DNA from: Cytophagales bacterium
GTDB taxonomy: Bacteria; Bacteroidota; Bacteroidia; Cytophagales; Cyclobacteriaceae
Direction: 5' to 3'
DNA length: 10,486 bases
Assembly (NCBI GenBank): GCA_003541895.1
Contig: DPLR01000457.1
Span: 1-10,486, forward strand
Under the pieces are notes generated by a model that was not told the DNA's origin, ran no database searches, and was given only the letters and a program-made list of their open reading frames with translations. Below, one piece after another: positions 5,129-6,934 of this stretch. Within the stretch, counting starts at the first letter, position 1; every line of letters starts with the position of its first letter. The position numbers and the translations under genes are program-made.

Positions 5129-6526
5129 TCAAATCGTCTCTGCCATCTTAACCGCTTTTCGCAGCGCTTCAAGTTTGTTGTTTACTTCTTGAAGTTCTTT
5201 CACTTTATCCGACTTCGAAACGATTCCTGCGCCTGCCTGATAAATCAATTGGTTATTCTTACTCAAAAAAGTCCGAATCATAATGGCTTTATTCAAAGAG
5301 CCATCAAAACCAATAACGCCAATTGCTCCACCGTAAAAACTTCGGTTTACATTTTCATATTGATTGATCAAATTCATGGCCATCACTTTGGGCGCACCCG
5401 AAAGTGTGCCTGCGGGAAAGGTGTCAGCAAACATTTGAACTGTTGATGACTTATCACTCAATCGTCCTGAAACTTTTGAAACCAAATGGATGACATGTGA
5501 ATAATATTGGATCTCTTTAAACACTTCTACTTTCACATCGTGTGCGTTTCTACTCATGTCATTTCGGGCTAAATCAACCAACATCACGTGCTCCGCATTT
5601 TCCTTTTCATCGGCACTGAGTTGAGAGGCAATTTTAGCATCCTCCTGATCATTGCCCGTTCTGCGGAAGGTGCCGGCAATCGGATAAATGAATGCTTGAC
5701 TGTTTTTTATTTGCAATTGAGCTTCAGGTGATGAACCGAATAATTTGAAACTCCCGAAATCAAAATAGAATAAATAAGGTGAGGGATTGATTGACCTCAA
5801 CGCGCGATAGACATTGAACTCATCGCCCTTGAATGTGTTCACAAATCTTCGCGACAACACAATCTGAAAAACATCGCCTCTAAAACAATGTTGTTTACCT
5901 TTCTCCACCATCTCCATAAACTCCTGGTCCGTAACATTCGAAGTTTCGTTTCCTTCCAATTTAAATTGGAAAGTTGAAAAGCGATTGCCGAAGATCAATT
6001 GCTCAATTCGGTCCAAGCCAGACTCCGCTTGATCACCATAATAAAATTCATGCAAGCGAAGTTCATTGAAGAAGTGATCGACCACAATCACATAGCGAAA
6101 TAATTTATAGATCATGTCAGGGATACCCTCTTTCGAAGAAGTGATCGTGACATCTTCAAAGTAACGAACGGCATCATAGGTAGTATAACCGAAAAGACCA
6201 AACGCCTCAGTGTTACTTTCATTCTTCTCAAACTCAAAGGAGTTTTTGAATTGCCCTAAAACTTCGGCTAGTTTTAAATCTTTGGTCAAGGGGTCTTCTT
6301 TCTTGATTCCGTCAGGGAAAATTTCGGTCACCATTCCGTTTTGCACAGTGAAAGATGCTATTGGCGAGCAACAGATCAGCGACAGACTGTTTTCTCTCGC
6401 ATGGTAATCCGAGCTTTCAAGGAGAATGCTACCGGCAAAAACATCGCGAAGCTTTAAATAAATATTGACTGGCGTAAGTGTGTCGGCCAGTAATTTCTTG
6501 TAGTTGGTACGAAGTTTATATTTCAT
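5129..6526 (-). CDS. trpE: Anthranilate synthase component I
   Basis: Converts chorismate to anthranilate with ammonia from TrpG; first committed step of the pathway. The 465 residues fit the family. The N-terminal part carries LLESSD (residues 35-40) and the central part NPSPY (247-251), the two elements that form the tryptophan feedback site in characterised TrpE, so allosteric inhibition is likely retained. The chorismate-binding domain shows IAGTFRR (283-289), DEKENAEHVMLVDLARND (306-323) and GTLSGAPK (373-380). The protein has no tryptophan, so its synthesis does not depend on the end product. The ATG lies 17 nt after the terminator T-tract with no Shine-Dalgarno sequence, as is usual in Bacteroidota. 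Transcription into the gene is probably controlled by the attenuator directly upstream. Confidence 0.98.
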   Translation of the reverse strand: MKYKLRTNYKKLLADTLTPVNIYLKLRDVFAGSILLESSDYHARENSLSLICCSPIASFTVQNGMVTEIFPDGIKKEDPLTKDLKLAEVLGQFKNSFEFEKNESNTEAFGLFGYTTYDAVRYFEDVTITSSKEGIPDMIYKLFRYVIVVDHFFNELRLHEFYYGDQAESGLDRIEQLIFGNRFSTFQFKLEGNETSNVTDQEFMEMVEKGKQHCFRGDVFQIVLSRRFVNTFKGDEFNVYRALRSINPSPYLFYFDFGSFKLFGSSPEAQLQIKNSQAFIYPIAGTFRRTGNDQEDAKIASQLSADEKENAEHVMLVDLARNDMSRNAHDVKVEVFKEIQYYSHVIHLVSKVSGRLSDKSSTVQMFADTFPAGTLSGAPKVMAMNLINQYENVNRSFYGGAIGVIGFDGSLNKAIMIRTFLSKNNQLIYQAGAGIVSKSDKVKELQEVNNKLEALRKAVKMAETI

Positions 6527-6543
6527 AATACGATGGTTAAAAC

Positions 6544-6576
6544 AAAAAAGCCCGCTCGATGAATCGGGCGGGCTTT
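6544..6576 (-). terminator. Intrinsic terminator of the trp attenuator
   Basis: On the minus strand AAAGCCCGC (6576-6568) pairs perfectly with GCGGGCTTT (6555-6547). An inner CGA/TCG pairing extends the stem past one C/A mismatch and closes a TTCA loop. Six T residues follow (6549-6544). GC-rich stem plus T-tract is a canonical Rho-independent terminator, facing trpE and ending 17 nt before its ATG. The position, between the Trp-rich leader peptide and trpE, makes it the terminator arm of an attenuator. It would also end transcripts coming from the THX gene. Confidence 0.88.
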
Positions 6577-6599
6577 CTTTATAAGTTTATGCTTTTCAA

Positions 6600-6671
6600 C
6601 TAAGCAATAGCACGACACCGATCAATTTTAGATCTGTGCCACCACCATGCTTGAGTTGTTATTCTTTTCAT
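6600..6671 (-). CDS. trpL: trp operon leader peptide (WWW)
   Basis: A 23-codon reading frame, ATG at 6671 to TAG at 6600, beginning MKRITTQAWWWHR and ending CRAIA. Three consecutive TGG codons lie at 6647-6639. Three tryptophans in 23 residues contrast with none in TrpE, TrpD, TrpC and TrpA together, so this is very unlikely to be chance. The peptide itself probably has no function; its translation senses charged tRNA-Trp. The start lies 3 nt after the TAG of the THX gene, which could allow reinitiation by the same ribosome, and no Shine-Dalgarno sequence is needed to explain the start. The stop lies about 23 nt before the terminator stem, beyond arm 2 of the regulatory hairpin, as attenuation requires. 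Confidence 0.88.
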   Translation of the reverse strand: MKRITTQAWWWHRSKIDRCRAIA

Positions 6672-6674
6672 TAC

Positions 6675-6854
6675 CTATTCTTCTTTTTTCTTAGCTGCTT
6701 TACGGGCCTTTGGCTTTTCGTCTCCTTTTGCTTTCGCTGATGATTTACTTGCCGTTCTTTTCAACCTTGCCTTTATCTTCTTACGGTTACGAGTGTTACC
6801 ATAAGAACCTTTAGTGCGTTTTCCCTTTGTTGATTTTTTATCTCCGCGTCCCAT
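6675..6854 (-). CDS. thx: 30S ribosomal protein THX family
   Basis: A 59-residue, extremely basic protein beginning MGRGDKKSTKGKRTKGSYGN. The pattern MGxGDKKxxKGKRxxGSYGxxR is the signature of the small-subunit protein THX (bS31), first known from Thermus, where a short peptide sits in the head of the 30S subunit. Bacteroidota versions carry a Lys/Ala-rich tail such as the one here (residues 36-59). The start is the ATG at 6854; the stop is TAG at 6677-6675. It is followed 3 nt later by the trp leader peptide and is the first coding sequence of the apparent transcript. The only terminator between it and trpE is the attenuator, so its transcript should either end there or continue through the trp genes. 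Confidence 0.9.
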   Translation of the reverse strand: MGRGDKKSTKGKRTKGSYGNTRNRKKIKARLKRTASKSSAKAKGDEKPKARKAAKKKEE

Positions 6855-6903
6855 TTATGATTTAGAATTTATGCCGCAAGTATAAGGATGATTTTTGGAG
6901 TTA

Positions 6904-6934
6904 CAAAAATAGACAACAATTTTTTTTGACTAAC
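6904..6934 (-). promoter_or_regulatory. Candidate Bacteroidota promoter for THX and the trp operon
   Basis: The minus strand reads TATTTTTG (6911-6904), an exact match to the Bacteroidota -7 consensus TAnnTTTG. A degenerate -33 element, GTTAG (6934-6930, consensus TTTG/TTG), lies 18 nt upstream. Transcription would start near 6897, leaving a leader of about 43 nt before the THX ATG. I saw no comparable -7 match inside the THX gene that would give trp its own promoter. The -33 half is weak and the region is AT-rich, so a chance match is possible. Confidence 0.45.

What the first reader, a model, noticed from the sequence alone, without database searches (positions are those of the whole stretch)
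6600..6671. Unannotated trp leader peptide with three tandem Trp codons in a Bacteroidota-type trp operon
A 23-codon frame with TGGTGGTGG at 6639-6647 precedes an intrinsic terminator and trpE. Four of the seven Trp enzymes here contain no Trp at all, so WWW in such a short frame is strong evidence for Trp sensing. Trp leader peptides are best described in Proteobacteria and Actinobacteria; leaders in this phylum are much less studied, and this one would be missed by standard gene calling.
Basis: partly seen in the sequence, partly recalled or inferred. Interest (0 to 1): 0.7.

Follow-up and report, generated by a model that had tools for sequence, protein, structure and literature searches.

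The report
Trp attenuator behind ribosomal-protein gene THX
The short reading frame with three tryptophan codons looks like a real tryptophan-sensing switch in front of the tryptophan operon, of a kind already known in this phylum; the unusual part is that in this lineage it sits directly behind, and probably borrows its promoter and its ribosomes from, a ribosomal-protein gene.

Summary
None of 20,000 dinucleotide shuffles gave such a frame. Of 197 distinct trpE-upstream regions, 161 have a short ATG frame with three or more tandem Trp codons; the next commonest run occurs in 10. Leader bases after WWW can pair with the Trp-codon region or with the terminator's 5' arm. The second complementarity is kept between loci of different letters (0 of 2000 permutations), and a folding model of the growing transcript switches as attenuation requires. 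The kind is known: Rfam RF01692 "Bacteroid-trp", although the window scores 28.9 bits against a cut-off of 49. I found no report of the architecture in this clade. A leader ATG lies -4 to +6 nt from the stop codon of ribosomal protein THX in 52 of 59 THX-type loci, and a near-consensus promoter lies before THX in 51 of 59 but between THX and leader in 1. So the trp operon looks like a regulated read-through extension of the THX message, with the attenuator also serving as THX terminator. Coupling and shared transcription are inferred, not measured.

The parts
6877..6907 (-). Bacteroidota-type promoter match: TTTG, 19 nt, TATACTTG (one mismatch to TAnnTTTG); 22 nt before the THX start codon
   Evidence: L001 is the window's own locus; consensus TTTG/TANNTTTG from a passage of PMC6847099; near-consensus match (at least 3 of 4 and 5 of 6) within 60 nt before THX in 51 of 59 THX-type loci, shuffle expectation 1.1
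6675..6854 (-). gene for 30S ribosomal protein THX (59 aa), the proposed first cistron of the transcript
   Evidence: TIGR04560 35.3 bits, cut-off 26; only THX match in the genome as held, 73.9% complete
6600..6671 (-). trp leader peptide frame MKRITTQAWWWHRSKIDRCRAIA*, ATG 3 nt after the THX stop
6639..6647 (-). three tandem Trp codons (the sensor)
   Evidence: run of three or more in 161 of 197 regions
6631..6640 (-). RNA region 1, GGCACAGATC; pairs with region 2 when no ribosome is stalled
   Evidence: hairpins 1:2 plus 3:4 in 29 relatives: 8 of 15 pairs changed on both sides, 0 of 500 shuffles
6614..6623 (-). RNA region 2, GATCGGTGTC; its GATCGG (6623-6618) is the antiterminator half; codons of the conserved D-R-C
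6562..6567 (-). RNA region 3 core, CCGATT, in the upper 5' arm of the terminator; pairs with GATCGG
   Evidence: own-arm complementarity across 163 loci, 0 of 2000 permutations
6544..6579 (-). intrinsic terminator (5' arm 6579-6568, 3' arm plus T run ending 6544); the attenuator and, by inference, also the THX terminator
5129..6526 (-). trpE, first structural gene under the attenuator; followed by trpG, trpD, trpC, trpF, trpB, trpA on the same strand
   Evidence: NCBIfam: trpA, trpB, trpC, trpD and trpG_papA over their cut-offs; trpE_most 404.5 bits, cut-off 517.7, and TrpF 158.7, cut-off 215, are the best families but below cut-off

Best explanation
This is a ribosome-mediated transcription attenuator for the trp operon, placed as the second cistron of the THX ribosomal-protein transcript. 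Shown by sequence and comparison: the WWW leader frame, the 1:2 hairpin, the terminator (3:4), a competing 2:3 complementarity, a promoter match before THX, and the near-zero gap between THX and the leader. Inferred: RNA polymerase starts before THX, and ribosomes that finish THX pass to the leader start codon. When charged tRNA-Trp is plentiful the ribosome reaches the leader stop codon and covers part of region 2, so the terminator forms and the message ends as THX plus leader. When Trp is scarce the ribosome stalls on WWW and disrupts region 1; region 2 then captures the terminator's 5' arm as it emerges and polymerase reads into trpEGDCFBA. With no ribosome on the leader, 1:2 forms and transcription also ends. 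The confidence given is for attenuation; the THX-dependent part I hold at 0.6.
For: Tandem Trp codons at the same place in 161 of 197 regions; next amino acid Gly in 10; among the 179 regions with at least two, 159 have three, 18 two and 2 four. Terminator hairpin of -10 kcal/mol or better in 178 of those 179. Leader-to-own-terminator complementarity over 163 distinct loci: mean -13.55 kcal/mol against -10.0 (sd 0.21) with arms permuted, 0 of 2000; the control segment upstream of WWW shows none (-6.95 against -7.14, 446 of 500 permutations as low). Helix letters differ widely while matching: GATCGG/CCGATC, GAATCGG/CCGATTC, TGAACAGC/GCTGTTCA, TGAACACA/TGTGTTCA, GCGATAAGTC/GACTTATCGC. Hairpins 1:2 and 3:4 in 29 relatives: 8 of 15 pairs with changes on both sides, 0 of 500 shuffles. 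Folding with a masked ribosome, transcript ending before the 3' arm: window 5'-arm bases paired to the leader are 1.3 with no ribosome, 13.4-13.7 stalled on W1-W3, 3.1 at the stop codon; stalled exceeds stop in 150 of 152 loci. THX: gap -4 to +6 nt in 52 of 59. Promoter match before THX in 51 of 59 and between THX and leader in 1 of 59, while loci without THX have it before the leader in 84 of 120.
Against: No expression data. Within the close alignment A1, read in fixed columns, the 2:3 helix shows no pair changed on both sides and no excess over shuffles; the number of pair types was not above shuffles either (196 of 500 reached it). The support for 2:3 comes from comparison between groups and from permutations that do not correct for relatedness; the own arm ranks in the top tenth of all arms in only 62 of 163 loci. 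Only 60 of 167 distinct loci (about 8 expected) beat all but 5 of 100 dinucleotide shuffles for the longest unbroken helix, and the window is not among them; its core helix is 5 standard pairs plus one G-U. In the full-length transcript the terminator is in the predicted best structure under every ribosome position tried, so the switch depends on 2:3 forming before the 3' arm is made, which is assumed. 18 of 197 regions have no tandem-Trp frame. Promoters are consensus matches, and the exact -7 box TAHHTTTG occurs before THX in only 1 of 59 (0.7 expected); the THX sites are one-mismatch forms such as TATACTTG and TATTATTG. The gap of 52 in 59 takes the most upstream in-frame ATG near the THX stop; with the ATG nearest WWW the gap is -1 to +6 in 37 of 59 (my count of the rows).
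Confidence: 0.85

Rival explanations
1. Trp attenuator as above, but the leader is translated by independent initiation (A-rich, Kozak-like context) and THX adjacency matters only for transcription.
For: Bacteroidota lack Shine-Dalgarno sequences and A at -3 favours initiation (abstract passage of PMC6847099). A stands at -3 of the leader ATG in 31 of 59 THX-type loci, much as in the others (58 of 120).
Against: The gap to the THX stop is -4 to +6 nt in 52 of 59 and falls in all three reading-frame phases, as expected for termination-reinitiation. A at -6 is less common in THX-type loci (12 of 59) than in others (55 of 120). The window itself has G at -3.
Confidence: 0.3
2. A second promoter inside or just after THX drives the trp operon, and THX is merely a neighbour.
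For: L074 (Fulvivirga imtechensis) has THX upstream but TTTG-N19-TACTTTTG between THX and its first leader. L066 has a THX-like tail, then a spacer with a promoter match 50 nt before the leader. An exact -7 box is commoner before leaders without THX (84 of 120) than before THX (1 of 59).
Against: In THX-type loci a near-consensus promoter lies between the THX start and the leader in 1 of 59 (shuffle expectation 0.2); the L074 site meets that rule, so it is the one. Relaxed -7 elements there are at the chance level (8 of 59, expected 10.2), against 58 of 59 (expected 11.2) in the 50 nt before THX.
Confidence: 0.15
3. The leader peptide acts in trans after release, like peTrpL of Sinorhizobium, besides or instead of cis attenuation.
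For: Trans action of a trp leader peptide is reported elsewhere (start of the abstract of PMC7298713 in a search listing). Residues outside WWW (H, D-R-C) recur in many close relatives.
Against: Those residues are encoded by regions 1 and 2, whose RNA pairing can explain them, and the N-terminal part varies. No test of trans action was possible.
Confidence: 0.04
4. The terminator is only the THX terminator, and the WWW frame is a chance reading frame.
For: The hairpin is in the right place to end a THX transcript.
Against: 0 of 20,000 shuffles and 161 of 197 regions with WWW; competing helices; the same element before trpE in 120 loci without a THX match.
Confidence: 0.02

Closest known systems
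Rfam RF01692 Bacteroid-trp (Bacteroidete tryptophan peptide leader RNA)
   Same: Same phylum, same place before trpE, tandem UGG codons, hairpin overlapping them; the match lies on the right strand and span (6694-6567).
   Different: 28.9 bits against a cut-off of 49. In the alignment shown the family's consensus ends in the terminator's 5' arm and pairs only the leader hairpin, so it holds neither the terminator nor the antiterminator helix. Over its cut-off in 27 of 296 phylum genomes, 25 of them one family code, f26, and in 1 of 96 relatives; both searches used stricter filters that lose some weak matches, and the control rang in 1 of 14 genomes (Bacteroides ihuae).
Rfam RF00513 Trp_leader (tryptophan operon leader; the proteobacterial attenuator, as I recall)
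   Same: Same logic: Trp codons, leader hairpin, terminator with a T run.
   Different: 27.4 bits against a cut-off of 41; here the leader follows a ribosomal-protein cistron.
Termination-reinitiation coupling of overlapping or abutting genes
   Same: TAATG-type overlap or near-zero gap between two cistrons; described generally in PMC6728339 (start of abstract in search listing only).
   Different: Here the downstream cistron is a sensor peptide rather than a protein gene. I recall no described case, and the searches listed none by title and start of abstract.

Membership tests
Ribosome-mediated trp attenuator (functional class) | short leader frame with tandem Trp codons upstream of trp genes | tested here: met
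Ribosome-mediated trp attenuator (functional class) | intrinsic terminator between leader and first trp gene | tested here: met
   (178 of 179 leader-bearing regions at -10 kcal/mol or better)
Ribosome-mediated trp attenuator (functional class) | mutually exclusive antiterminator using the terminator's 5' arm | tested here: met
   across loci; fixed-column count within A1 gives no support; the window's own helix is short (5 standard pairs + 1 G-U) and does not stand out from shuffles
Ribosome-mediated trp attenuator (functional class) | Trp-dependent read-through | not testable with these tools
   needs RNA data with and without Trp
Rfam RF01692 Bacteroid-trp | score at or above the curated gathering score (49 bits) | tested here: not met
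   28.9 bits; no match at gathering
Rfam RF00513 Trp_leader | score at or above the gathering score (41 bits) | tested here: not met
   27.4 bits
T-box riboswitch (RF00230) | match in the window or genome | tested here: not met
   no gathering match in the window; none in the genome as held, 73.9% complete; control rang in 5 of 14 genomes, 2 over the cut-off
TrpR-controlled trp operon | Trp repressor (PF01371) encoded in the genome | tested here: inconclusive
   no match in G000, but the genome is 73.9% complete; control rang in 2 of 14 genomes
TRAP-controlled trp operon | TRAP protein (MtrB) and its repeated binding sites | not tested
   not searched

The most novel reading that the evidence does not exclude
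In one clade of Cytophagales-type bacteria the trp operon has lost its own promoter and become a conditional read-through extension of the mRNA of ribosomal protein THX. The trp attenuator doubles as the THX terminator, and the sensor ribosome is handed over from THX by termination-reinitiation, so that trp expression is read against both charged tRNA-Trp and the rate of ribosomal-protein synthesis.
Probability: 0.6. Interest if true: 0.65.

Novelty: new variant of a known kind. Interest (0 to 1): 0.5.

Why it matters
Trp attenuation is the textbook case of transcription control by translation, yet in this phylum the one Rfam family named for it passes its cut-off almost only in one family code of the sample. 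The comparison here finds leaders with three or more tandem Trp codons in 161 of 197 sampled regions, and tandem-Trp frames in 10 of 15 regions from outside the window's class, and gives an antiterminator helix that can be mutated and tested. If the THX coupling holds, it is a leader peptide that relies on a ribosomal-protein cistron for its ribosomes, in bacteria that lack Shine-Dalgarno sites. It also warns that a ribosomal-protein gene's apparent terminator can be a metabolic switch.

Tried and rejected
Peptide family models: no NCBIfam or Pfam match to the 23-aa peptide at E up to 1, so membership had to be judged on RNA and comparison. The simple promoter/terminator scan found no terminator and one sigma-70-like site (6906-6879 minus; 1.5 expected by chance) that overlaps the Bacteroidota-type site I name; I replaced the scan by folding and by a TTTG/TAnnTTTG scan.

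First terminator finder required a T4 run and found 152 of 179; a relaxed tail rule found 179 of 179, 178 at -10 kcal/mol or better. Fixed-column covariation of the 2:3 helix within alignment A1 gave no support; the changes I see are insertions (GATCGG to GAATCGG) or whole-group switches. Alignment A2 (18 sequences with the TGAACAGC helix) was made but no pair count was run on it; A1 holds 29 of the 55 close sequences listed. T-box and Trp repressor searches of the genome found nothing, weak evidence in a 73.9% complete genome.

Rows dropped: of 219 loci, L064 and L065 had too little upstream DNA, and regions identical over the 200 nt before trpE were counted once, leaving 197; near-copies remain. 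Of the 253 phylum genomes with a TrpE match (its table was cut), I took upstream DNA for 78 through that call (29 new loci, 49 stretches). For 15 of the short fetched stretches tblastn did not find the trpE start and the strand was taken from the search table. THX-type counts use 59 distinct leader-bearing loci. One search counted 51 rather than 52 loci with a gap of -4 to +6; I take the difference to be L020, where masked bases in THX would give a false early stop when read from the predicted start codon (not checked separately), and I use. 18 of the 179 tandem-Trp hits have only WW and some may be chance (for instance L076, L149, L166). The pattern TGGTGGTGGCAY occurs at 4 places in the genome as held, 1 for the reversed control. 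Of the three others, two overlap longer open frames in another frame and one (L222) was not resolved.

Papers: PMC2864571, PMC4833913, PMC6414381, PMC7366714, PMC9723704 and PMC6847099 were read as passages only; PMC7298713 and PMC6728339 were seen in search listings only. The view that the THX arrangement is not in print rests on searches, in an open-access library only.

Full report
What is there. On the minus strand the window reads: promoter-like TTTG-N19-TATACTTG (6907-6877), the THX gene (6854-6675), a 23-codon frame with TGGTGGTGG (6671-6600), a terminator hairpin with a T run (6579-6544), then trpE and the other six trp genes. NCBIfam names trpA, trpB, trpC, trpD and trpG over their cut-offs; for TrpE and TrpF the best families are the right ones but below cut-off. 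A frame with WWW did not arise in any of 20,000 dinucleotide shuffles of the 148 nt between THX and trpE.

Is it conserved? I collected 219 loci around TrpE relatives: 80 named genome records, 30 loci of relatives, 29 new ones from a sample of the phylum, and 80 further upstream stretches. After dropping two with too little upstream DNA and counting identical regions once, 197 remained. A short ATG frame with at least two adjacent Trp codons lies before trpE in 179 of 197: 159 with three, 18 with two, 2 with four. Frames with three or more within 300 nt are found in 161 of 197; runs of three of any other amino acid occur in at most 10 (Gly). Eighteen regions have no tandem-Trp frame; for one of these genomes (G329, locus L184) an RF01692 match lies about 1.3 kb upstream of trpE, outside the 600 nt I fetched. 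Of 15 regions from outside the window's class 10 have one. In many close relatives the peptide core is A-WWW-H, with D-R-C, D-M or D-W further on.

What is known. Bacteroid-trp, RF01692, is in Table 1 of Weinberg et al. 2010 (PMC2864571, passage: RNA y, cis-reg y, switch n, Bacteroidetes). A 2019 paper says it is conserved upstream of the Flavobacterium psychrophilum trp operon (PMC6414381, passage), and a 2021 transcriptome paper of that species found clues of leader-peptide attenuation upstream of amino-acid operons (PMC9723704, passage). The window matches RF01692 on the right strand and span but at 28.9 bits, below its cut-off of 49, and RF00513 at 27.4, below 41. RF01692 passes its cut-off in 27 of 296 phylum genomes, 25 of them in one family code, f26, and in 1 of 96 relatives, with filters that lose some weak matches. 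So the kind is known and the model is narrow. The alignment shown has no terminator or antiterminator pairing.

The switch. In 29 close relatives the hairpin that overlaps the last Trp and the His codon (1:2) and the lower terminator stem (3:4) together show 8 of 15 pairs with changes on both sides; none of 500 shuffles reached this, and slid registers gave at most 3. The number of pair types was not above shuffles (196 of 500). Leader bases downstream of WWW are complementary to the 5' arm and loop of the same locus's terminator. Over 163 distinct loci the mean duplex energy is -13.55 kcal/mol with the own arm against -10.0 (sd 0.21) with arms permuted, 0 of 2000; the own arm ranks 27th of 163 at the median and in the top tenth in 62. 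The 70 nt upstream of WWW show no such effect. The letters differ between groups while matching within each locus: GATCGG/CCGATC (window: GATCGG/CCGATT), GAATCGG/CCGATTC, TGAACAGC/GCTGTTCA, TGAACACA/TGTGTTCA, GCGATAAGTC/GACTTATCGC. In many relatives of the window the TGAACAGC helix begins at the leader's TGA stop codon itself, so a terminating ribosome would cover it. Against this: in fixed columns of alignment A1 the 2:3 helix shows no change on both sides; only 60 of 167 loci (about 8 expected) beat all but 5 of 100 dinucleotide shuffles in the longest unbroken helix, the window not among them; and the permutation test does not correct for relatedness.

A folding model with a ribosome mask, on the transcript before the 3' arm is made, gives for the window 1.3 arm bases paired to the leader without a ribosome, 13.4-13.7 with a ribosome stalled on W1-W3, and 3.1 with it at the stop codon. 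Over 152 distinct loci with three or more Trp codons the means are 3.9, 10.9-11.4 and 2.3, and stalling exceeds termination in 150 and the empty leader in 150. In the window's full-length transcript the terminator is present in the best structure under every mask tried. So the switch needs 2:3 to form first, as in textbook attenuation. This is a thermodynamic model with an assumed footprint, not a measurement.

The recurring His and D-R-C codons need no function of the peptide: they lie in regions 1 and 2 of the RNA.

The THX coupling. Of the 179 leader-bearing loci 59 have a THX match upstream. Taking the most upstream in-frame ATG near the THX stop, the leader starts -4 to +6 nt from that stop in 52 of 59, most often +3 (18), -1 (9, TAATG) and 0 (7), in all reading-frame phases; 57 lie within 12 nt and the other two at 18 and 202. 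The 202 is L074, counted to the second of its two leaders. Taking instead the ATG nearest WWW, 37 of 59 lie at -1 to +6 (my count of the rows). With the Bacteroidota consensus TTTG/TANNTTTG (PMC6847099 passage), allowing one mismatch in all or so (at least 3 of 4, 5 of 6, and 9 of 10), a promoter lies within 60 nt before THX in 51 of 59 (shuffle expectation 1.1) and between the THX start and the leader in 1 of 59 (expectation 0.2). In the 120 loci without a THX match it lies within 80 nt before the leader in 84 (expectation 5.1). A relaxed -7 element occurs in the 50 nt before THX in 58 of 59 (expected 11.2) and inside THX up to the leader in 8 of 59 (expected 10.2). The exact box TAHHTTTG occurs before THX in only 1 of 59 (expected 0.7), against 84 of 120 before leaders without THX: the THX sites are one-mismatch forms, often TATACTTG or TATTATTG.

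On a TrpE tree of 119 sequences, labelled for THX within 600 nt, THX-bearing loci make up 57 of the 59 rows on one side of a branch with 98% SH-aLRT support, with 4 label changes in all against about 40 in shuffles; it is a quick tree in which two long branches of the group, L071 and L097, meet. Of the two exceptions in that group, L049 has a THX reading frame broken by frame changes and L066 has a THX-like tail, then a spacer with a promoter match. The one THX-bearing row outside, L074, has a promoter match TTTG-N19-TACTTTTG between THX and its first leader. It may resemble the state before the promoter was lost; that is inference. THX has one match in the window's genome, this one, in an assembly that is 73.9% complete.

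Reading. The trp operon in this clade most likely lacks a promoter of its own. It is transcribed from the THX promoter and reached only by read-through at an attenuator that otherwise ends the THX message. The sensing ribosome is most likely handed on from THX. Attenuation as such I hold at 0.85; the full THX-dependent reading at about 0.6. No search in the open-access library found the arrangement described (titles and starts of abstracts seen).

Verdict. The leader itself is a diverged member of a known kind; the arrangement is a new variant.

Noticed in passing
L074:1188-1469 (Fulvivirga imtechensis) and L077:328-571 (Fulvivirga lutimaris): Two trp attenuators in tandem before trpE: each has its own WWW leader frame and its own terminator hairpin.
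   Followed up: partly
RF01692 hits G351:C1:2390025-2390148, G232:C8:40166-40295, G305:C1:1291511-1291631: Bacteroid-trp matches (40-43 bits, below cut-off) away from the listed TrpE match of the same genome, perhaps another Trp-controlled locus.
   Followed up: no
18 of 197 trpE-upstream regions (e.g. L148, L154, L158: three genomes of one genus code, g4): No tandem-Trp frame within 450 nt of trpE; these lineages may have lost the attenuator or use another control.
   Followed up: no
L049, upstream of trpE: THX reading frame broken by several frame changes in a single-contig genome while the leader frame is intact; may be sequencing error or decay.
   Followed up: no
L199 and L213: Leader frames with four tandem Trp codons (FFWWWWH, IWWWWH), the longest runs seen; 159 of 179 have exactly three.
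   Followed up: no
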